A stretch of DNA of 64,000 bases from a bacterium (GTDB lineage Bacteria; SZUA-182; DTGQ01): the NCBI GenBank assembly GCA_040755755.1, contig JBFLZW010000031.1, forward strand, positions 81,371-145,370, given 5' to 3'. Positions 10,086 to 60,805 of the stretch are shown here, piece after piece; position 1 is the stretch's first letter; each line of letters begins with the position of its first letter. The notes under the pieces were generated by a model that saw only the letters and a list, made by a program, of their open reading frames with translations, made no database searches and had not been told where the DNA came from. The position numbers and the translations under genes are program-made.

Positions 10086-11153
10086 TCAGGCATCCGAGCG
10101 GCTTTCGCGCTCCGGCGGCATCAAAATATGATGCTTTTTCATGAAATATCCCAGGTTCCTTCGGTCAATTCCCAGCAGCTTGGCTGTTCTGCTTTTAACC
10201 CAATTGGCCCGGTCAAGGGCATTGAGGATTATGATTCTCTCGTACATCAATAACTGGTTTCGTAAATTAAGATCCTTGGCCAGCAGCTTCCTGTCCATCG
10301 GGATGCTTTCAGTCGGAGAGACCGCAGGCTGGTGATTCTCCCTGATATGGGCAGGAAGAATATCCGGATATATTTTATCCCTGCTTTCGATAATCATGGC
10401 ATTCTCGATAACATTTTTCAATTCCCGGATATTGCCCGGCCAGTCATACTTTACGAGCAGTTCCATAGCCTCGCTGGAAACTCCCTTCACTTTAGTCTCC
10501 ATTTCATTGCTGTTATGCTGAATGAAATGCTCCAGCAGGGAAGGGATATCCTCACGCCGATCTCTCAGGGGAGGAAGAAAAATAGTAATGACGCTCAGCC
10601 GGTAATAGAGGTCTTCGCGGAAGGTTCCCTTTTGAGCGGCATCCTTGAGAATGACATTGGTCGTGGCGATAACCCGGACATCCACCTTAATGGTTTTACT
10701 GCTTCCCACCGGCACGATCTCGTCTTCCTGGAGCACACGCAACAGCTTGGCCTGTCCGGCCAGCGGCATATTTCCAATTTCATCGAGCAGTATGGTCCCT
10801 TTATTGGCCAGCTCAAACCGGCCCTTTCGATCCGACAGGGCACCGGTATAGGATCCCTTCACATGACCGAACAGTTCACTTTCCAGCAATGTCTCGCTTA
10901 AAGCCGCGCAGTTCACCTTGATAAAGGGCCGCCCATTCCGTAAACTGTGCTTATAAATCGCATTAGCCACCACTTCCTTGCCTGTTCCGCTCTCGCCCTG
11001 AACCAGTACTGTTGACTTTGTCTTGGCAATGATTCCAATCAGGCGGCAAATCTCTTTGATCTTCTCGCTCTTACCGATGATATCTGCTTGAACGTAATCC
11101 TGACCCATAATCAATACATCCCCCCGATCAATGTGAACAGGTTCCAGTTTCAT
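10086..11153 (-). CDS. Sigma-54-dependent activator without sensory domain (EBP1)
   Basis: Bacterial enhancer-binding protein of 355 residues. After about 25 N-terminal residues comes an AAA+ domain with Walker A GESGTGKE, the sigma-54-contacting loop in [13 protein letters not shown], and Walker B LLDEIG. A Fis-type helix-turn-helix sits at the C-terminus (SRTAKLLGIDRRNLGYFM). The loop reads GSYTGA instead of the canonical GAFTGA. No receiver, GAF or PAS domain precedes the AAA+ module, so like PspF it is probably controlled by its own level or by a partner protein. A near-consensus sigma-54 promoter and two palindromes lie upstream, which suggests autoactivation. Downstream are selA, selB and the radical SAM gene. 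Shine-Dalgarno is weak. Confidence 0.9.
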   Translation of the reverse strand: MKLEPVHIDRGDVLIMGQDYVQADIIGKSEKIKEICRLIGIIAKTKSTVLVQGESGTGKEVVANAIYKHSLRNGRPFIKVNCAALSETLLESELFGHVKGSYTGALSDRKGRFELANKGTILLDEIGNMPLAGQAKLLRVLQEDEIVPVGSSKTIKVDVRVIATTNVILKDAAQKGTFREDLYYRLSVITIFLPPLRDRREDIPSLLEHFIQHNSNEMETKVKGVSSEAMELLVKYDWPGNIRELKNVIENAMIIESRDKIYPDILPAHIRENHQPAVSPTESIPMDRKLLAKDLNLRNQLLMYERIIILNALDRANWVKSRTAKLLGIDRRNLGYFMKKHHILMPPERESRSDA

Positions 11154-45193: not shown

Positions 45194-45631
45194 CTATAAT
45201 TTAACTTTTTTCTCTTCGAGTTTCTTGTTTAAGAGGTCACTGGCGATAATAATCTTTTCCCGACCGTAGATAAAGACGGTCTCTTTGATTTCCTCCAGGC
45301 AGTGCCCTTCACGATACGTAGCCAGCTTTAACAGCATGGGAAGGTTCACGCCCGTAACAACCTCGATACGCTTCGTGGACAAAAAGGATAAGCTCAGGTT
45401 TGAGGGACTTCCTCCGAACATATCCGTTAAAATCAAAACTCCCGAACCGGAATCCACCGCTTCGATGGCTTTCTGTATATCGTGCATCGCCTGCTCTACC
45501 CCGTTTCTCGAATCTACTGAAACGGCCTTCATTTTCGGAAGCGAACCGACAATAAGCTCAGAGCTTTTCAGCAGCTCTTCCGCCAGGTTCCCGTGAGCGA
45601 CGATAACTACTCCCACCATGTTATTTTCCAT
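45194..45631 (-). CDS. PTS mannose-family IIA component
   Basis: A 145-residue IIA-Man type domain. The phosphorylated His is in VIVAHGNLAEELL (about residue 13), and ILTDMFGGSPSNLSL is the family motif. It is separate from IIB rather than fused. It follows hprK at 25 bp, so HprK and the transporter are transcribed together. Confidence 0.94.
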   Translation of the reverse strand: MENNMVGVVIVAHGNLAEELLKSSELIVGSLPKMKAVSVDSRNGVEQAMHDIQKAIEAVDSGSGVLILTDMFGGSPSNLSLSFLSTKRIEVVTGVNLPMLLKLATYREGHCLEEIKETVFIYGREKIIIASDLLNKKLEEKKVKL

Positions 45632-45656
45632 TTTGTCCTCACTTAAGTAGTAAAGC

Positions 45657-46616
45657 TCAAATAAGTTTGGCCTTGGATTTTTTGCTCAGTATATCGATCA
45701 CCTTCTGATCAAAGTCACGGGCTGAGTAATAACCGCTTTCCTTTAAGAGCTGATTTCGGGCTGCAACCTCAATAATAATGGCCATGTTTCTCCCCGGAGC
45801 TACCGGCATTTTAATTAACGGCACCTCAACTCCCAGGATATTCACCGTACTTTCCTTCAGCCCCAGTCGATCATACTCATACTCTTTTTTCCACTCTTCC
45901 ATCACTACCGCAAGCTCTATCTTTTTTCGGTAACGGACAGCAGCCACTCCAAAGAGGTCTTTAATGTTGATGATTCCAAGGCCCCGCAGCTCCATATGAT
46001 AGCGGATCATCTCCGGGCCGCTGCCAATCAGCACGTCAGGGGGCAGCAGTTTGATGTTGACCATGTCATCCGAAATCAACCGATGTCCTCGAACAATAAG
46101 GTCCAGCGCGCATTCACTCTTACCGATGCTGCTCTTGCCAAGCAGGAGAACTCCCCGTCCGTAGATGTCCATCAGAACACCATGAATGCTCGTTTCCAGG
46201 GCTAACTTCTCTTCCATGTAAGTTGAAATCTGACGGATAAAAATCGAACTTTGGAGACTGGATTGCAATATGGGGATTTTATACTTGTTTCCTACCGAAA
46301 TCAGCTCCGGCGGCGGCAGCATGCTCTTGGTGAGAATAAAGCAGGAAATAGGTATTTGGCAAATAGCCTCTAAGACTTCCTGACGACGCTCACTGGAGAG
46401 GGTGTCCATAAAGGACACTTCGGTACTTCCTAAGACCTGGACCCGTTCTGCCCGTATCTGGGCAAAATACCCTGCCAGCGCCAGCCCCGGTTTTTGAATG
46501 CGAGGGGAGGTAATCTTGCGGTCGAGCCCTTCGTCCCCATTCAGGACTTTCAATTGCAGCCGTTCCGCCTGCTCGTTTACGAGCTCCCGGATGGTTAAGC
46601 ATTTCTGGACGAGCAT
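45657..46616 (-). CDS. hprK: HPr kinase/phosphorylase
   Basis: Phosphorylates and dephosphorylates HPr on Ser-46. The 319-residue product has the usual N-terminal domain and a C-terminal kinase domain with Walker A LLGKSSIGKSECAL (SSIG instead of SGIG) and the HprK signature ELRGLGIINIKDLFGVAAVR. In Gram-negative bacteria this kinase is often encoded beside rpoN, hpf and ptsN, exactly as here. It is one of the strands tying carbon status to this region. Confidence 0.95.
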   Translation of the reverse strand: MLVQKCLTIRELVNEQAERLQLKVLNGDEGLDRKITSPRIQKPGLALAGYFAQIRAERVQVLGSTEVSFMDTLSSERRQEVLEAICQIPISCFILTKSMLPPPELISVGNKYKIPILQSSLQSSIFIRQISTYMEEKLALETSIHGVLMDIYGRGVLLLGKSSIGKSECALDLIVRGHRLISDDMVNIKLLPPDVLIGSGPEMIRYHMELRGLGIINIKDLFGVAAVRYRKKIELAVVMEEWKKEYEYDRLGLKESTVNILGVEVPLIKMPVAPGRNMAIIIEVAARNQLLKESGYYSARDFDQKVIDILSKKSKAKLI

Positions 46617-46626
46617 TCTTGCGTGT

Positions 46627-47094
46627 TTATCCTATAACGTCTTTTTCTTCATCGGCAATGGCCTGGTAAATGTCTCTGCCACTTTTAGCCTGCATTAATG
46701 CCTCTCGGAAGGTTGTTTTTTTCAGGAGCCGGGAAATTCTGGCCAGTATCTTCAGATGCAAAGGCGCCGAATTCTCCGGTGCCAGAAACAGAAAGAAGAG
46801 GTGAGCGGGCTTATTATCCAGAGATTCGAAATTGATTCCCTTTCGTGACCGTCCGAAAGCGGCCACCAGCGTTTTTATGTCACTGAATTTGGCATGGGGA
46901 ATGGCCACGCCGTCCCCTATCCCGGTACTGCCCAGCTTTTCTCTCTCCAGTAAAACCTCCAGAGCCTTATCAGCATTCCGTACCTGGTTGTTATTAACCA
47001 GAAGTTGAACTAATTCCCTGAGCACCCCCATCTTGGTTTCAGCTTTGAGATCTGCTTCAATAACCTCCTCCGGCAAATAATCCAAGACCCTCAT
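46627..47094 (-). CDS. ptsN: PTS IIA-like nitrogen-regulatory protein PtsN
   Basis: A 155-residue fructose-type IIA domain. The phospho-His lies in GDGVAIPHAKF, close to residue 69. PtsN senses nitrogen and potassium status through the PTS-Ntr relay in other Proteobacteria; no PtsP or NPr is seen here, so it may take phosphate from the HPr encoded nearby. It lies 10 bp upstream of hprK in the rpoN-hpf-ptsN-hprK order. Confidence 0.93.
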   Translation of the reverse strand: MRVLDYLPEEVIEADLKAETKMGVLRELVQLLVNNNQVRNADKALEVLLEREKLGSTGIGDGVAIPHAKFSDIKTLVAAFGRSRKGINFESLDNKPAHLFFLFLAPENSAPLHLKILARISRLLKKTTFREALMQAKSGRDIYQAIADEEKDVIG

Positions 47095-47129
47095 AAAATT
47101 CCCTCCATTACGCGGACCATATCACTCTC

Positions 47130-47681
47130 TCACTGGAGCTCAGGCTCAATCAGTACCACTTTATCATCTTTAGACCGGTAAATTACACTGATGGAATTCG
47201 ATGCCGGATTGAGAAACACGAAGCAATCTTCCTCTGTCATGTCCATCTGCATCATCGCTTCATCCAGACTCATTGGCTGGACAGCTACCCGTTTCGTCTT
47301 GATCATCCGCAGGTTAGATGGGCCTTCCTCCTCTTTGCTTTCAGAGGCGAACATATCCACTCCTATAATGCTCTCTTTCAGGGGCTGCCTGGTCTTGTGC
47401 TGGCGGATTTTCTCCTTGTATTTTTTTACCTGCCGCTCGATCTTTTCCATCACCAGATCGATAGAGCTGTACATGTCATCGGTCTCTTCTTCACCATTGA
47501 TGGTGATCCCGTTGGCTTTAATGGTTACTTCGGCAGAATGACGATATTTTTCTACAGATAAGATGACGTCCGCCTCTTTGATATTTTCCAGATACTTGCC
47601 TACGCGCTCTACTTTATTTTTTACATAATCTTGGAGGGCATCAGTCATCTCCATATGCCTACCCGTAATGAGGACTTGCAT
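47130..47681 (-). CDS. hpf: Ribosome hibernation promoting factor, long form
   Basis: A 183-residue long-form HPF. The N-terminal domain (about 1-100) has ITGRHMEMTDALQDYVKNK and the C-terminal dimerisation domain has VAVQPMSLDEAMMQMDMTEEDCFVF. Long forms make 100S dimers directly. The start ATG has GGGAGGT seven bases upstream. It follows rpoN and has its own candidate promoter. Confidence 0.95.
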   Translation of the reverse strand: MQVLITGRHMEMTDALQDYVKNKVERVGKYLENIKEADVILSVEKYRHSAEVTIKANGITINGEEETDDMYSSIDLVMEKIERQVKKYKEKIRQHKTRQPLKESIIGVDMFASESKEEEGPSNLRMIKTKRVAVQPMSLDEAMMQMDMTEEDCFVFLNPASNSISVIYRSKDDKVVLIEPELQ

Positions 47682-47717
47682 TGTCAGGACCTCCCTGAAA
47701 AATATATAATAATAAAG

Positions 47718-47746
47718 AAAATAATTTCTGTCAGACCACTACTCAA
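47718..47746 (-). promoter_or_regulatory. Candidate promoter of hpf
   Basis: On the minus strand TTGAGT (47741-47746), 17-bp spacer, TATTTT (47718-47723), in the 177-bp gap after rpoN. The -35 box is weak. Confidence 0.45.
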
Positions 47747-47858
47747 TCCCGTGTATGGCTGAAAAAAGAACCCATAACGGTCACAAGAGGATGCACAAAG
47801 AAGAACATTCCTCCGCCTTGCCCAAACAGGTTGAACAACCGCCGGCCTTCGCTGAGGC

Positions 47859-49328
47859 TTAGTCGAGAAAGACCGCTTTTCGCTTTTGAGAAGGTAATAT
47901 GTGCAGCTCATCTCTATACTTGGCAATTGTTCTTCTGGCAATCACCACTCCCTGCTTTTTGAGTAGCTCAAGAATCTGAGTATCGCTGTAGGGTTTTCGG
48001 ACATCTTCGTTTTTGATCAATTCACGAAGCAGTTCTTTTACCCGGACAGAAGAGATAAAATCACCATCTTTTTTCTTCAACCCGGAATTAAAGAAGAACT
48101 TCAGCTCAAAAATCCCCCGCGGAGTATACATGTATTTATTGGTGGTAACCCGGCTGATTGTGGATTCGTGCATTGAAATATCGTTAGCCACATCCACGAG
48201 AGTCAGGGGTTTGAGATAAGCTACCCCTTTGTCGAGAAAATCCCGCTGAAAGTTGACAATGCTTCTGGCTACATTATACAGCGTTCTTTGTCTCTGCTGG
48301 ATACTTTTAATGAGCCAGACAGCGGACCGCAGCTTCTCCTCGACATACTTTCGGGTATTGTCGGGAACATTTTTTCCTTTCCGCAGGATCTTCCGGTAAA
48401 TATTACTCACCCGAAGCTGCGGCAACCCTTCATCGTTCAAAGAGATGACATAATCATCTCCCATTTTATAGACGAATACATCAGGCACGATATAATGAGA
48501 AACATCGGGATTAAACCGCCGGCCAGGTTTGGGATCATAGCTCAGGATTATGTCGGCCAGCTCCTTTACTTTGGCCAGGCTGATACCCATGTTCTTTGAG
48601 ATAGCCTGATATTCTCTCGATTCCAGCAGGCTGATATGATGCTGAATCATTCTCTTGATCAGAGAGGCTGTCGGCTCTTCCTCTTTGACTTGCAGCAGCA
48701 GGCATTCCTGAGGAGTTCTGGCTCCAACGCCGGGCGGGTCCAGGTTCTGGATCAGGTGCAGGACATCCTCGACTTCCTTGGCATCGTGCAGTTCCAAAAC
48801 CTTGGCCATTTCTTCAACCGTTGCACACAGATAGCCGTTCTCATCGATATTGCCGATGATCATCTCCCCTATCCGGAACTCCTGCTCGCTGATGGAGGAA
48901 GACATGCGCAATTGCCACAGGAGGTAGTTTTGCAGGGATTGGGGCCTGGTCAGGATATTTTCCAGCGGGGGAAGCTCCCGCTCATCACCGCCCGATACCG
49001 AGAACCTGTTTGTGTCCACGGCGTCATCGTCGATAAAGTTTTCCCATTCCACTTCCCGTTCCGCATCATCAAAACCGTTTTCATCGCTGCCAAGCCTAAT
49101 GTCTTCAGCCTTGACATCCCGCTGGTCCATCTCCTCTGATCCGAAATCCGAAGGCGGTTCCAGCGATAATTCCTCCAACATGGGATTTTCCTGCAATTCC
49201 TGGTGAATGAGCTGGGTCAGTTCGAGTTTCGAGAGCTGCAATAACTTGATGGACTGCTGCAACATCGGAGTCATCATTAGCCGGTGCGTCAACTTCATGT
49301 TTAAAGTTTGCTTCATCTCCAGCGCCAT
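47859..49328 (-). CDS. rpoN: RNA polymerase sigma-54 factor RpoN
   Basis: A 489-residue sigma-54. The N-terminal Gln/Leu-rich activator-interacting region (MLQQSIKLLQLSKLELTQLIHQELQENP) is followed by an acidic linker, the core-binding domain and the RpoN box ARRTIAKYRDELHILPS that reads the -24 element. It serves the -24/-12 promoters noted at 11186, 53083, 56991 and 57227 and the activators EBP1 and EBP2. It follows the HU/IHF gene by 125 bp. Confidence 0.98.
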   Translation of the reverse strand: MALEMKQTLNMKLTHRLMMTPMLQQSIKLLQLSKLELTQLIHQELQENPMLEELSLEPPSDFGSEEMDQRDVKAEDIRLGSDENGFDDAEREVEWENFIDDDAVDTNRFSVSGGDERELPPLENILTRPQSLQNYLLWQLRMSSSISEQEFRIGEMIIGNIDENGYLCATVEEMAKVLELHDAKEVEDVLHLIQNLDPPGVGARTPQECLLLQVKEEEPTASLIKRMIQHHISLLESREYQAISKNMGISLAKVKELADIILSYDPKPGRRFNPDVSHYIVPDVFVYKMGDDYVISLNDEGLPQLRVSNIYRKILRKGKNVPDNTRKYVEEKLRSAVWLIKSIQQRQRTLYNVARSIVNFQRDFLDKGVAYLKPLTLVDVANDISMHESTISRVTTNKYMYTPRGIFELKFFFNSGLKKKDGDFISSVRVKELLRELIKNEDVRKPYSDTQILELLKKQGVVIARRTIAKYRDELHILPSQKRKAVFLD

Positions 49329-56314: not shown

Positions 56315-56695
56315 CTACTTTCCCGTCCGGTCGAGGCGGATTTTCCGCTCGGCCAGAATAATATAGAGGATGAGGGCAACATCCATGACCAGGGAGGACA
56401 CCTCGATGCTTGCCTCACGCCGGGCCAATGGTTCTGCTATGAAGGGGCTCAGGAGCAGGTTGGCCGTGACGATAATAAAAAAACTGGTAAACGGGATAGC
56501 GAAGAAAAATATGCCCAATTCCAGATAATCCACCATCCGCCTCTCCGAACCATTGTCATCCCGATTCCCGATCTGAATTAATCCCTGTCTCCTCCGGATA
56601 CCAAACCAGATCGGAAAGGCCACCCACAAGACAAAGAAAATACCATAGAACAGGAATGAGAGCACATGATGGATGCTGGCGGTGAAAGTTTGCAT
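56315..56695 (-). CDS. Small integral membrane protein, unknown function
   Basis: A 126-residue protein with about three or four hydrophobic helices: residues 8-30 (LSFLFYGIFFVLWVAFPIWF), 55-85 (LGIFFFAIPFTSFFIIVTA) and 100-118 (VMDVALILYIILA). Charged loops contain RRRQG and NGSERRMVDY. GAAGGG lies five bases before the ATG. It is downstream of the tandem RNA genes on the same strand; whether it shares their regulation is not known. No family is recognised. Confidence 0.65.
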   Translation of the reverse strand: MQTFTASIHHVLSFLFYGIFFVLWVAFPIWFGIRRRQGLIQIGNRDDNGSERRMVDYLELGIFFFAIPFTSFFIIVTANLLLSPFIAEPLARREASIEVSSLVMDVALILYIILAERKIRLDRTGK

Positions 56696-56807: not shown

Positions 56808-56941
56808 GGAAAGAAGATTTCTCATCGGAGAGAATGGCTTTTGGCAAAAAAAAGGCTATCAGTTGCTCCCCAGCACCGCACTGATAGCCCCAGGCATACA
56901 TCTTAGAGAGTATCCCCTATGTGTATGGCCAATTTCTTGAT
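56808..56941 (-). repeat. Tandem RNA unit, copy B
   Basis: A 134-bp unit identical to 57026-57160 except for one fewer A in the poly-A (poly-U) tract. It covers the RNA body, the terminator and about 40 bp beyond. Flanking DNA between the copies has diverged. Confidence 0.95.
56846..56889 (-). terminator. Terminator of RNA copy B
   Basis: Ten-bp stem GGCTATCAGT (56880-56889 on the minus strand) and ACTGATAGCC (56854-56863), followed by eight U. Only the minus strand has the U-run, which fixes the orientation. Confidence 0.9.
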
Positions 56942-56980
56942 TGTCTCATTTTGGTTACTGCTTTATCTTGTCATTTTTCA
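56846..56980 (-). ncRNA. Predicted sigma-54-dependent small RNA, copy B
   Basis: Predicted RNA of about 135 nt, from near 56980 to the U-run ending at 56846. After a conserved ACAAGATAAAGCAGTAA near the 5' end come an imperfect stem (GGCCATACACAT with ATGTATGCC) whose loop holds AGGGGATACTCTCT, and a terminal stem GGCTATCAGT/ACTGATAGCC with an apical TGCT-GGGG-AGCA hairpin and 8 U. Both loops display GGGGA. No good ORF with ribosome site is present. I do not recognise an Rfam family. Expression and function are inferred. Confidence 0.72.
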
Positions 56981-56990
56981 CACTTATTAA

Positions 56991-57006
56991 TGCATTTCCG
57001 ATGCCA
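56991..57006 (-). promoter_or_regulatory. Sigma-54 promoter of RNA copy B
   Basis: Minus strand TGGCATCGGAAATGCA: GG and GC at exact -24/-12 spacing. The predicted start is near 56980. It matches the promoter of copy A at 15 of 16 positions although nearby spacer DNA has diverged. Confidence 0.82.
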
Positions 57007-57025
57007 ACTTAAAAAATATGATCAC

Positions 57026-57160
57026 GGAAAGAAGATTTCTCATCGGAGAGAATGGCTTTTGGCAAAAAAAAAGGCTATCAGTTGCTCCCCAGCACCGCAC
57101 TGATAGCCCCAGGCATACATCTTAGAGAGTATCCCCTATGTGTATGGCCAATTTCTTGAT
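57026..57160 (-). repeat. Tandem RNA unit, copy A
   Basis: 135-bp unit, the upstream (first transcribed) copy; see copy B. Nine instead of eight U in the terminator tract. Confidence 0.95.
57064..57108 (-). terminator. Terminator of RNA copy A
   Basis: Stem GGCTATCAGT/ACTGATAGCC (57073-57108) followed by nine U (57064-57072). Confidence 0.9.
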
Positions 57161-57216
57161 ATCTTGTTTTGTTACTGCCTTGTTATTTGCTTACTGCTTT
57201 ATCTTGTCGTTACGAC
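57064..57216 (-). ncRNA. Predicted sigma-54-dependent small RNA, copy A
   Basis: Predicted RNA of about 153 nt from near 57216 to 57064. The 3' 97 nt equal copy B; the 5' portion is longer, with an extra AAGGCAGTAACAAAACAAGA-like stretch. It has the same two hairpins with GGGGA loops. It is transcribed in the same direction as the EBP2 gene that ends 250 bp upstream, but from its own -24/-12 promoter. A role as a base-pairing RNA or as a decoy for a GGA-binding protein such as CsrA is possible. Confidence 0.72.
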
Positions 57217-57226
57217 TATTTATAAT

Positions 57227-57242
57227 TGCATTTCCAATGCCA
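57227..57242 (-). promoter_or_regulatory. Sigma-54 promoter of RNA copy A
   Basis: Minus strand TGGCATTGGAAATGCA with invariant GG and GC at correct spacing; predicted start near 57216. The palindrome at 57401-57428 is about 170 bp upstream. Confidence 0.82.
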
Positions 57243-57400
57243 ACCTTAAAAATCCAAATTATTTTAAACCGAGCCTTATATTTACCGTTATTTGCCTGCA
57301 TCTCGATTCTATTCAGGATGCCTATGGATAGTTTCAGAGGTGACTATGGACAAACTGAGCGTGTCAATGTGCGACAATTACCTTGGAAATCGTCTCAGCA

Positions 57401-57428
57401 TATATGAAAATGATAACATTTTCATATA
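57401..57428. promoter_or_regulatory. 28-bp palindrome, candidate activator site
   Basis: Perfect 12-bp arms TATATGAAAATG and CATTTTCATATA around a 4-bp centre. It lies between the EBP2 stop and the first RNA promoter. The ATGAAA/TTTCAT arms are shared with the two palindromes upstream of EBP1, but here they are ten bases apart instead of four. The activator that binds it is unknown. Confidence 0.65.
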
Positions 57429-57466
57429 GTTGTCTATTTTTGTAGCGCTGTGGAATAAAATCGCAA

Positions 57467-60400
57467 TCATGATACAGGATTTCGGCTGATATTGTACTTC
57501 TTCAACCAGCGGTAAAAGGTCGCACGACTGATTTTCAGAATTCTGGCACTCTCATCCGTATCCCAATCAGTGTCCTTCAATACTTTGAGCAAAATGTCTT
57601 TTTTAACATCGTTCAGACTCAGGTCTTGCTTGATCCCTTGTTGCTGGTCAATAGGAGGAGTATCAACAGGTCTGACGGGATATTCCCTGTTCTTTTGCTG
57701 ATGGATGATCTCCAGAGGTAAATTTTCCAGGCCGATGATTGTGCCTTCACATTTGACAAAGGCGTGTTCGATAGCATTTTCCAATTCCCGTACATTTCCT
57801 GGCCAGGAATAGGCAAACATCAGATCCAGAGCCTGATTACTGATTGATTGAATAGGTTTATTAGTCTTTTCCCGAAACTTTTCAATGAAATGGTTAACCA
57901 GCATCGGCAGATCTTCCATTCGCTCCCGCAAAGGGGGAATATGGATGGTAATCACATTGAGACGATAATAGAGATCTTCTCGGAATTCCTTGTTTTCAAC
58001 CGCCTTCTTCAGGTCCTTGTTGGTTGCTGCAACAATTCTGACATTGATTTTCTTTATGTTTTCTCCTCCAACGGGGACAAACTCCCGCTCCTGAATTACC
58101 CGAAGCAATTTAACCTGAATGGATAGACTGATATCACCTACTTCATCGAGAAAGATAGTTCCTCCATCAGCCATTTCGAACCGGCCTATTTTATCGCGAA
58201 TAGCTCCGGTGAATGCACCCTTGACATGGCCAAACAACTCACTCTCGAGCAGGTTTTCAGACAATACTGAGCAGCAGACCTCTACGAAGGGCTTATCGTG
58301 CTGGGGGCTGTTATAATGAACCGCCCTGGCTATTAATTCTTTTCCCGTTCCACTTTCTCCGAGAAGCAATACCGTCGTCATGTTTTGGGCTACAACCTGA
58401 ATAAGTTCATAAATTTCCTGCATTTTATGATTTTTGCCAATAATATTTCCAAACCGGTACCGTTCTTTTAACTCCCTGATCCGCCGCTGTTCCGATTCGA
58501 TAAGCTGGGATTCCAGCCTTTTTCTTTCAGTAATGTCCCGAACCACTTCGATAATCGAGCGGCTGCCTTCCTCGATACTCAGGGGGGATGCGGAAATTTC
58601 GATCAGCCGTTTTTGCTTATCCTCCTTGATAAAATTGACCGGCACTTGGTTCTCCTGGAAAATCTTATCCAGGGCGCAGGGGTTGCAGGGAGCATCGCCT
58701 CCCATAAAAACCCGGTAGCATTTCTTGCTGATCTGATTACCGAAAAGGTCAATCAGGTTTTGGTTCATGAAGAGGATATTGTATTTCGTGTCAATGACCC
58801 GGATTCCATCATTCATGTTGTTGAGTATGGCATCCAGTAAATCCCGGCTGCTCTTGATTGCCTCCTGAAGTCTCATCCGCTCGGTGATGTCCTTTGATGT
58901 TTCAACTACCGAGGTGATTTTCCCATTCCGGTCTCGAATGGGAGATGTGCTGGTGAGGTAGAGAACACTGGTACCGTCTTTATCAGCAATGGAAAATTCC
59001 TCTCCCGAATAGATTTTCCCATCGGAGAAGGTTTTCTGCACCGGGCAGGACGAACAGGGATGATCAGACCCCTTATATACCTGATAGCACTTGCGGCCGA
59101 TAATATCCTCTCCATATCTTTGCAAAGCTACCGGATTAGCCCAGATGATATGGAGATCTTTGTCCAGAATCGAAATCCGGTCACTTCCTATGGATTCCAG
59201 AATAGCACGCAGCCGCTCTTCGGATTTGCGGATCTGATCTTCCATTACCAGTTTCTTTTCAAGGTATTTAACTTCCTCTTCCACTTTTATCCGTTTTTTA
59301 TTGACATTAAAAATAATAAAGCTTCCCAGGCTGACCAGGCAAAAAAGTCCGATCACGAGCAAGGCAATATTGCGGTGAACCCGGTTGATCGGATGAATCT
59401 CCTGATAGGGTGCAGCGACTACTACTGACCAGAGTTGTTCGTGAATCCTGAGAGGAGAATAAGCAAACAGCTTTAATTGATCGTTCCCGAGTTGTCTCAA
59501 ATCATACGGAGGGCTTTCCTCGCTGAAACCCTCCGCACCTTTTTTGATCTTTTCCAGGAATTTTTGCCGGTATTGGGGCGGATAGGAGCTTGAAGAGACT
59601 TCAGCCAAAAATTTTTTGCCTATATATTTATCATCAGGATGATACAGGATATTTCCATCCTGGTCGATCAAGAGACCATACTTCCGAGCCCCTGAATTTA
59701 CATGTTGAAGGTAAGTTTTGGCTGTTTTGAAAACATCGATCTCGGCGACAAGAAATCTGACCTGCGCCTGTTTATCCGCGACCTCGGGCAAATCCTTAAT
59801 CATCGGGCAGATAATCGTGATTGGAACAAAGACCAGCAGGAGCTTGTTCCTGGGGGAAGAGGAAGAAATCAGGACGGTATGGGCCTTGTCCGACCACTTT
59901 TGGAAAGAAGGAAGGTACTTCTCCAACCCGCTGGGAGTATCTCTTTCCACCACTTTTCCCCCCTCTGTGACCCCAAAACGAACAAGACCAAGCGAATCGA
60001 TGAGTTTCAGACTTCGGATATAATTATGGTTAATTTGATAAATTCTATTTAATTCCGCCTGGCATCGGGTATCCATGAGCTGTATTGACCGGGACTGGGT
60101 AAGGTAATTAAGCTCGTGCTCGGTCTCCATCATAAATTCACGGATCCCGTTGGCGACGCTTTGAGCGATCACAAGCTGATGCTGCTGGAATTGTTGAAAA
60201 ACATAACTCTCAAACTGACGATGGATCATATCAGCAATAACCAGCATTCCAAGAACAACGATACCAATCAAGATCAAAAGCAGCTTGGTTGTCCGTGGTG
60301 TTTTAAAAATCTTGACATTCTCAAAACCTGCATCCGGTAAAGGAGTACCGGATTCTCGTGAATGAGAGTCATCCTCTTTCCTCAATTGAGGATCATCGCC

Positions 60401-60805
60401 ACTCCTGACAATAGAGCTTACAACCGGGTCATTCTCTCTTTTATCCTGATGAAGCAAAGCCTCAGAATCGGAAGACGAGCAAGTTTTCACCTCTGGTGAG
60501 AATTGGGGGAGGAGACTAATTTGGTCATCATGCACCGACAGAAGACCGGCCTTGATACCGAATTTGATCAGCCGCCGTATCCAGTATTTATTTTCCCGGA
60601 TCACTTTTGGGGTTTTCCCCTGCTTGTGTAAATGATCTTCAAGATGATCCAGGAGGCAGGAGATTGAGACTTCCGGGATATCTCCCTCAGTTTCAACGCC
60701 GTACGCCTCATAGAGTTTTTTTAAGGCGGAGCGCAGCATGTAGATGCCGGAGGAAGTAATTTCTCCAGAAGTAATATACGTTTCCGACAGATTGTATAAG
60801 TTCAT
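57467..60805 (-). CDS. Membrane-bound CACHE-PAS-PAS sigma-54 activator (EBP2)
   Basis: A 1112-residue activator. Order: helical N-terminal domain (1-105) of unknown fold, polar linker, transmembrane helix (about 172-195), an extracytoplasmic dCACHE-like sensor (about 200-480, with [14 protein letters not shown]), a second helix (about 488-510), coiled coil, two PAS domains, the AAA+ domain (Walker [11 protein letters not shown] near 815; [10 protein letters not shown]) and a Fis-type HTH ([17 protein letters not shown]). Both PAS domains carry a Cys motif, [15 protein letters not shown] and [15 protein letters not shown]. Few sigma-54 activators are integral membrane proteins. It probably senses an external ligand and drives the RNA promoters downstream. 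Confidence 0.9.

What the first reader, a model, noticed from the sequence alone, without database searches (positions are those of the whole stretch)
56808..57242. Two tandem sigma-54-dependent small-RNA genes
A 134/135-bp unit is duplicated in tandem, identical except for one A in the terminator run. On the minus strand each unit carries a strong intrinsic terminator and is preceded by a near-consensus -24/-12 promoter (57227-57242 and 56991-57006). DNA between promoter and conserved body has diverged, while promoter and body are kept, which suggests selection on an RNA. The RNAs would be about 153 and 135 nt. Sigma-54-driven multi-copy sRNAs are known (Qrr, GlmY/GlmZ), but this sequence is not one I recognise.
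Basis: partly seen in the sequence, partly recalled or inferred. Interest (0 to 1): 0.88.

Follow-up and report, generated by a model that had tools for sequence, protein, structure and literature searches.

The report
Regulator-linked sigma-54 small RNA pair
An uncultured bacterium carries two near-identical genes for a previously unlisted small regulatory RNA, right behind the membrane-bound activator that most likely switches them on; relatives keep the RNA almost letter for letter, which makes it a new case of a known kind of RNA switch in a group that seems to lack the usual RNA helper proteins.

Summary
Two 134/135-bp units stand in tandem on the minus strand, differing by one base in the terminator run. 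Each has a GG-N10-GC (-24/-12) promoter and a strong terminator. Predicted RNAs are 153 and 135 nt.

Four MAG genomes of one family keep the element in the same place: between a sigma-54 activator gene (dCache-PAS-PAS-AAA+-HTH_8) and a 126-codon membrane ORF. The -24/-12 boxes are kept in all four. The 77-nt RNA body is 97.4% identical between two species whose activator genes match at only 49.3% of fourfold sites. The terminator hairpin shows compensatory changes around an invariant UGCUGGGGAGCA tip. All four promoters have two TCCATA boxes 22-24 bp apart, 64-118 bp upstream: the likely activator site.

Rfam has no match. Hfq and CsrA were not detected in the phylum's nine held genomes, so Hfq-dependent pairing and CsrA titration are unlikely. 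The closest precedent is Pxr of Myxococcus (behind activator nla19, tandem copies in Cystobacter, no Hfq); CrcZ/CbrB is similar. This is a new member of that kind, not shown to be homologous. Expression, rpoN dependence and targets are untested.

The parts
57064..57216 (-). predicted sRNA copy 1 (153 nt): A-rich unstructured 5' part, stem-loop 1 (57149-57112), stem-loop 2/terminator (57110-57073) and T9
   Evidence: start inferred from the -12 box
57227..57242 (-). -24/-12 promoter 1, TGGCATTGGAAATGCA
   Evidence: kept in G001, G002, G003
56846..56980 (-). predicted sRNA copy 2 (135 nt): stem-loop 1 56930-56893, stem-loop 2/terminator 56891-56854, T8
56991..57006 (-). -24/-12 promoter 2, TGGCATCGGAAATGCA
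57323..57350 (-). candidate activator-binding site: two TCCATA boxes (57350-57345 and 57328-57323), starting 108 and 86 bp upstream of the -24 box
   Evidence: pair with 22-24 bp spacing in all four genomes, 0 of 20000 shuffles share such a repeat
57440..57466 (-). conserved block just behind the activator stop codon (TTGCGATTTTATTCCACAGCGCTACAA), role unknown
   Evidence: alignment of four genomes
57467..60805 (-). membrane-bound sigma-54 activator (1112 aa): two TM helices (read from the sequence) around a weak dCache match, two PAS, Sigma54_activat, HTH_8; predicted activator of the sRNAs
   Evidence: Pfam, NCBIfam; orthologues directly upstream of the sRNA in three genomes
56315..56695 (-). 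126-aa membrane ORF without Pfam/NCBIfam match; conserved neighbour, probably independent of the sRNAs (own sigma-70-like promoter TTGTAT-N17-TATCAT on the minus strand, 56796-56768)
   Evidence: G004 has the ORF behind a metF-like gene without any sRNA
47859..49328 (-). rpoN (sigma-54), in the same window
   Evidence: PF04552 hit at G000:C31:129247-129720 = window 47877-48350; ORF

Best explanation
Two tandem genes for one trans-acting small RNA. The membrane-bound activator encoded just upstream senses a signal outside the cytoplasmic membrane through its dCache-like domain and/or one inside through its PAS domains, binds the paired TCCATA boxes, and drives sigma-54 RNA polymerase at both -24/-12 promoters. 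Each transcript ends at its own intrinsic terminator. Shown by sequence comparison: the element, its synteny, purifying selection on the RNA body, kept -24/-12 boxes, kept paired boxes, and a hairpin with compensatory changes. Inferred: that the RNA is made, that this activator drives it, and that the G-rich segments of the RNA (the invariant GGGG tip of stem-loop 2 and the GGGGAUAC segment of stem-loop 1) pair with C-rich sites in target mRNAs without Hfq. Repeated copying of the hairpin (whole unit in this genome, hairpin alone in G002) suggests that dose of the GGGG tip matters. The confidence given is for the activator-driven sigma-54 sRNA reading; the mRNA-pairing step alone is about 0.5.
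For: Homologues in 4 of 9 phylum genomes, all in one family and all between activator and 126-aa ORF; body 97.4% identical against 49.3% at 341 fourfold sites of the activator gene; -24/-12 score 21.7-22.7 of 24.2 in all, about 1% chance per intergenic region (27/3000 shuffles); TCCATA pair 4/4; 5 pairs with changes on both sides, 2/500 shuffles, none when slid; rpoN present; 126-aa ORF occurs without the sRNA in G004; literature precedents with the same layout.
Against: No transcript data. Only four genomes and six hairpins, two of them near-identical, so the covariation sample is small, and a terminator hairpin will show some covariation in any case. The TCCATA shuffle test ignores shared ancestry. 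Stem-loop 1 is only weakly better than shuffles (z -2.5; z -1.5 in G002, where its alignment is uncertain). No target was found: no full complement of the 12-nt tip was recognised in the family's genomes and no conserved pairing with the activator or 126-aa ORF start.
Confidence: 0.8

Rival explanations
1. Same transcription units, but the RNA is a sponge: the invariant UGCUGGGGAGCA hairpin tip binds an RNA-binding protein and titrates it, as CrcZ does with Hfq or CsrB with CsrA.
For: The tip, including its 4-bp stem, never varies in six hairpins while the outer stem changes; the hairpin has been multiplied in two ways in two lineages; 5' part is A-rich as in CrcZ.
Against: Hfq and CsrA, the two known sponged proteins, were not detected in any of the nine genomes. 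Only one or two tips per RNA, whereas CrcZ has six A-rich motifs (PMC4063720).
Confidence: 0.25
2. The RNA is a cis-acting leader or attenuator of the downstream 126-aa membrane gene.
For: The 126-aa ORF follows the RNA, same strand, in all four genomes.
Against: A second promoter and terminator lie between copy 1 and the ORF; distance from terminator to ORF varies from about 110 to 350 bp; the genus keeps a sigma-70-like promoter in front of the ORF; G004 has the ORF behind a metF-like gene with no such RNA.
Confidence: 0.07
3. The conserved body encodes a short peptide (MYAWGYQC-GAGEQLIA).
For: Frame is open in the two window copies, G001 and G003, with an in-frame 3-nt insertion and synonymous changes in G003.
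Against: G002 has no such frame though the hairpin is kept; the C-terminal end differs between the two window copies because the T run changes frame; the G003 changes are those that keep the stem paired; no good ribosome site at standard spacing.
Confidence: 0.04
4. Chance -24/-12 matches over a duplicated terminator without regulatory role.
For: Terminators are common and -24/-12 matches alone are weak evidence.
Against: Conservation of 97.4% against near-saturated fourfold sites, and boxes kept in four genomes.
Confidence: 0.04

Closest known systems
Pxr sRNA (Myxococcus xanthus and relatives)
   Same: Lies in the intergenic region downstream of a sigma-54-dependent regulator gene (nla19), has its own sigma-54 promoter, folds into several stem-loops, has tandem paralogues each with a sigma-54 promoter in Cystobacter, narrow distribution, host without Hfq (PMC5568312, PMC5684412).
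   Different: Regulator there is a response regulator, here a membrane dCache-PAS protein; other flanking gene is an NADH dehydrogenase, here a 126-aa membrane ORF; Pxr sequence was not on hand, so homology was not tested.
CrcZ / CbrB (Pseudomonas, Azotobacter)
   Same: sRNA gene next to the gene of its sigma-54 activator, RpoN-dependent; activator binds non-palindromic 6-bp subsites 20-25 bp apart (PMC6296734, PMC6292655).
   Different: CrcZ is 407 nt and titrates Hfq (PMC4063720); here about 135-153 nt, no Hfq detected, no Rfam match to CrcZ.
Qrr1 / LuxO (Vibrio)
   Same: sigma-54 sRNA beside its activator gene; multi-copy family (PMC8043402).
   Different: qrr1 is divergent from luxO; Qrr RNAs need Hfq (own knowledge); no Rfam match.
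GlmY / GlmZ with GlrR (Enterobacteria)
   Same: sigma-54 promoters on paired homologous sRNAs (PMC3844500).
   Different: No sequence match in Rfam; the two genes lie at separate loci.

Membership tests
sigma-54-dependent sRNA genes (general kind) | -24/-12 promoter (GG-N10-GC) at the right distance from a terminated noncoding unit | tested here: met
   both copies and three relatives
sigma-54-dependent sRNA genes (general kind) | rpoN and an AAA+ activator in the genome | tested here: met
sigma-54-dependent sRNA genes (general kind) | rpoN-dependent transcript | not testable with these tools
   needs RNA data
Pxr | intergenic position behind a sigma-54 regulator gene with own sigma-54 promoter | tested here: met
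   against PMC5568312
Pxr | Pxr sequence and SL1-SL3 structure | not tested
   Pxr sequence not available in the papers read
Pxr | neighbouring regulator is the response regulator nla19 and the other neighbour an NADH dehydrogenase | tested here: not met
   dCache-PAS activator without receiver domain; 126-aa membrane ORF
CrcZ, Qrr, GlmY/GlmZ (Rfam families) | match to the family's covariance model | tested here: not met
   no match at gathering score in window or relatives nor at E up to 5
CsrA- or Hfq-titrating RNAs | target protein encoded in the genome | tested here: not met
   no CsrA or Hfq hit in nine genomes, controls positive

The most novel reading that the evidence does not exclude
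The RNA works through its invariant UGCUGGGGAGCA hairpin tip in a way not described before, for example by binding an unknown RNA-binding protein or by kissing-loop pairing, in a bacterial phylum that has neither Hfq nor CsrA.
Probability: 0.2. Interest if true: 0.7.

Novelty: new member of a known kind. Interest (0 to 1): 0.45.

Why it matters
Sigma-54 activators with an sRNA gene as immediate neighbour are known in Myxococcus (Pxr), Pseudomonas (CrcZ) and Vibrio (Qrr1). An apparently unrelated RNA with the same layout in a small, uncultured phylum suggests the arrangement is wider than thought and may have arisen more than once. Because Hfq and CsrA were not detected there, it is also a compact system in which to ask how sRNAs work without them.

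Tried and rejected
Rfam at relaxed threshold gave only mir-557 and a snoRNA far below cut-off: chance. R1 hits at E 0.1-0.9 were not followed up and are taken as chance. Paralogous activators were checked for sRNAs downstream: G003:C266 has a -24/-12 site ahead of a secreted Gly/Met-rich protein, G004:C52 ahead of a secreted protein, none has the RNA. Other TGCTGGGGAGCA places in the class lack the terminator-hairpin context (most read as coding) and none is an obvious full-complement target. Other TCCATA-pair places lack a good -24/-12 box. Pairing with the starts of the activator or 126-aa gene is not better than shuffles in a consistent way. The 12-bp inverted repeat at 57401-57428 is not kept in G002/G003, so it is not the activator site; it may be a hairpin behind the activator gene. 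No match in plasmids or viral contigs.

Full report
What is there. On the minus strand, between the stop codon of an 1112-aa sigma-54 activator (57467) and a 126-aa ORF (start 56695), lie two tandem units. Each has a GG-N10-GC promoter, an A-rich stretch of 60 or 77 nt, a 77-nt body with two stem-loops, and a T run. The bodies are identical; the terminators differ by one base. The estimated transcripts are 153 and 135 nt. The folded body has z -3.3 and the terminator hairpin z -4.2 against dinucleotide shuffles; the whole transcript does not stand out (z -1.3 and -0.6) because its 5' part is unstructured.

Relatives. The genome is a 5.26-Mb assembly (88 contigs, 97.6% complete) of a phylum with nine held species. 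The RNA is found in four genomes, all in its own family. A scan of 84,980 species genomes for the hairpin pattern found only the same three relatives: CSMAG_150 and CSMAG_2299, filed as Pseudomonadota bacterium, and HOT.CON.50. In each, the RNA lies between an orthologue of the activator (62-82% identical; 74% over the partial G003 copy) and an orthologue of the 126-aa ORF, while the wider surroundings are largely rearranged. G002 has one promoter and two successive hairpins with the same 12-nt tip; the genome of the window duplicated the whole unit.

Selection. Window against G001, the nearest relative: body 97.4% over 77 nt, fourfold sites of the activator gene 49.3% over 341 sites, promoter-to-body spacer about 71-80% with long gaps, upstream 200 bp 67%. 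So the RNA body is under strong constraint. Within the window, however, the 3' flank behind the terminators is also nearly the same in both copies and is not conserved in G001; the copies' identity therefore comes from recent duplication or gene conversion and is not itself evidence of selection.

Structure. In five aligned hairpins from four genomes, 97.5% of cells pair and five pairs show a change on both sides; two of 500 shuffles reach that, and slid structures show none. The tip UGCUGGGGAGCA never varies. Stem-loop 1 (UAGGGG/UCUCUA in the window, AGAGGA/UCCUCU in G002) is probably kept, but the G002 alignment there is uncertain.

Control. -24/-12 scores are 21.7-22.7 of 24.2 in all four genomes; such sites occur 11 times in 453,148 strand positions, and five of the eleven are these promoters. 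Upstream are two TCCATA boxes, 22-24 bp apart, starting 64-118 bp before the -24 box in all four genomes; none of 20,000 shuffle sets shares any such 6-mer repeat, with the caveat that shuffles ignore common ancestry. This resembles the 6-bp subsites of CbrB at crcZ, 20-25 bp apart (PMC6296734). rpoN itself lies in the window at 47859-49328.

Mechanism. The activator has two membrane segments (read from the sequence) around a weak dCache match, two PAS domains with Cys-rich motifs, the AAA+ domain and HTH_8. The natural reading is that it senses a ligand, binds the TCCATA pair and fires both promoters. What the RNA does is inferred. Hfq and CsrA gave no hit in nine genomes while the controls were positive, so Hfq-dependent pairing and CsrA titration are unlikely. 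I favour Hfq-independent pairing of the G-rich segments with C-rich mRNA sites (roughly 50%) over a protein sponge (25%). No target was found.

The 126-aa ORF is probably a bystander: it has its own sigma-70-like promoter in the genus, and in G004 it stands behind a metF-like gene without the RNA.

Comparison. Pxr of Myxococcus is the closest precedent: behind the sigma-54 regulator gene nla19, own sigma-54 promoter, tandem paralogues in Cystobacter, no Hfq, narrow distribution (PMC5568312, PMC5684412). CrcZ/CbrB and Qrr1/LuxO also put the sRNA next to its activator gene. No Rfam family matches. I file it as a new member of the known kind 'activator-linked sigma-54 sRNA', not as a member of any of these families.

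Noticed in passing
window 11201-11186 (-) and ORF 10086-11153 (-): A very good -24/-12 site (TGGCATAGGATTTGCT, score 23.1) 48 bp ahead of a short sigma-54 activator gene of about 355-374 aa; possible sigma-54-driven or self-driven activator.
   Followed up: no
window 45194-49328 (-): rpoN followed by hpf-, ptsN-, hprK- and mannose-type PTS EIIA-like genes (named from sequence by eye): an rpoN cluster combined with HPr kinase.
   Followed up: no
window 57440-57466 (-): 27-nt block behind the activator stop codon kept in all four genomes (TTGCGATT..CGCTACA); role unknown.
   Followed up: partly
L029 (G003:C266) 1230 (-) and L022 (G004:C52) 3474 (+): Paralogous or divergent activators in relatives have a -24/-12 site just downstream leading into genes for secreted proteins (a Gly/Met-rich protein; a large exported protein), so activator plus adjacent sigma-54 target may be a common layout in this phylum.
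   Followed up: partly
nine genomes of the phylum: Very many sigma-54 activator genes (up to about 80 matches per genome) but no detectable Hfq or CsrA.
   Followed up: partly
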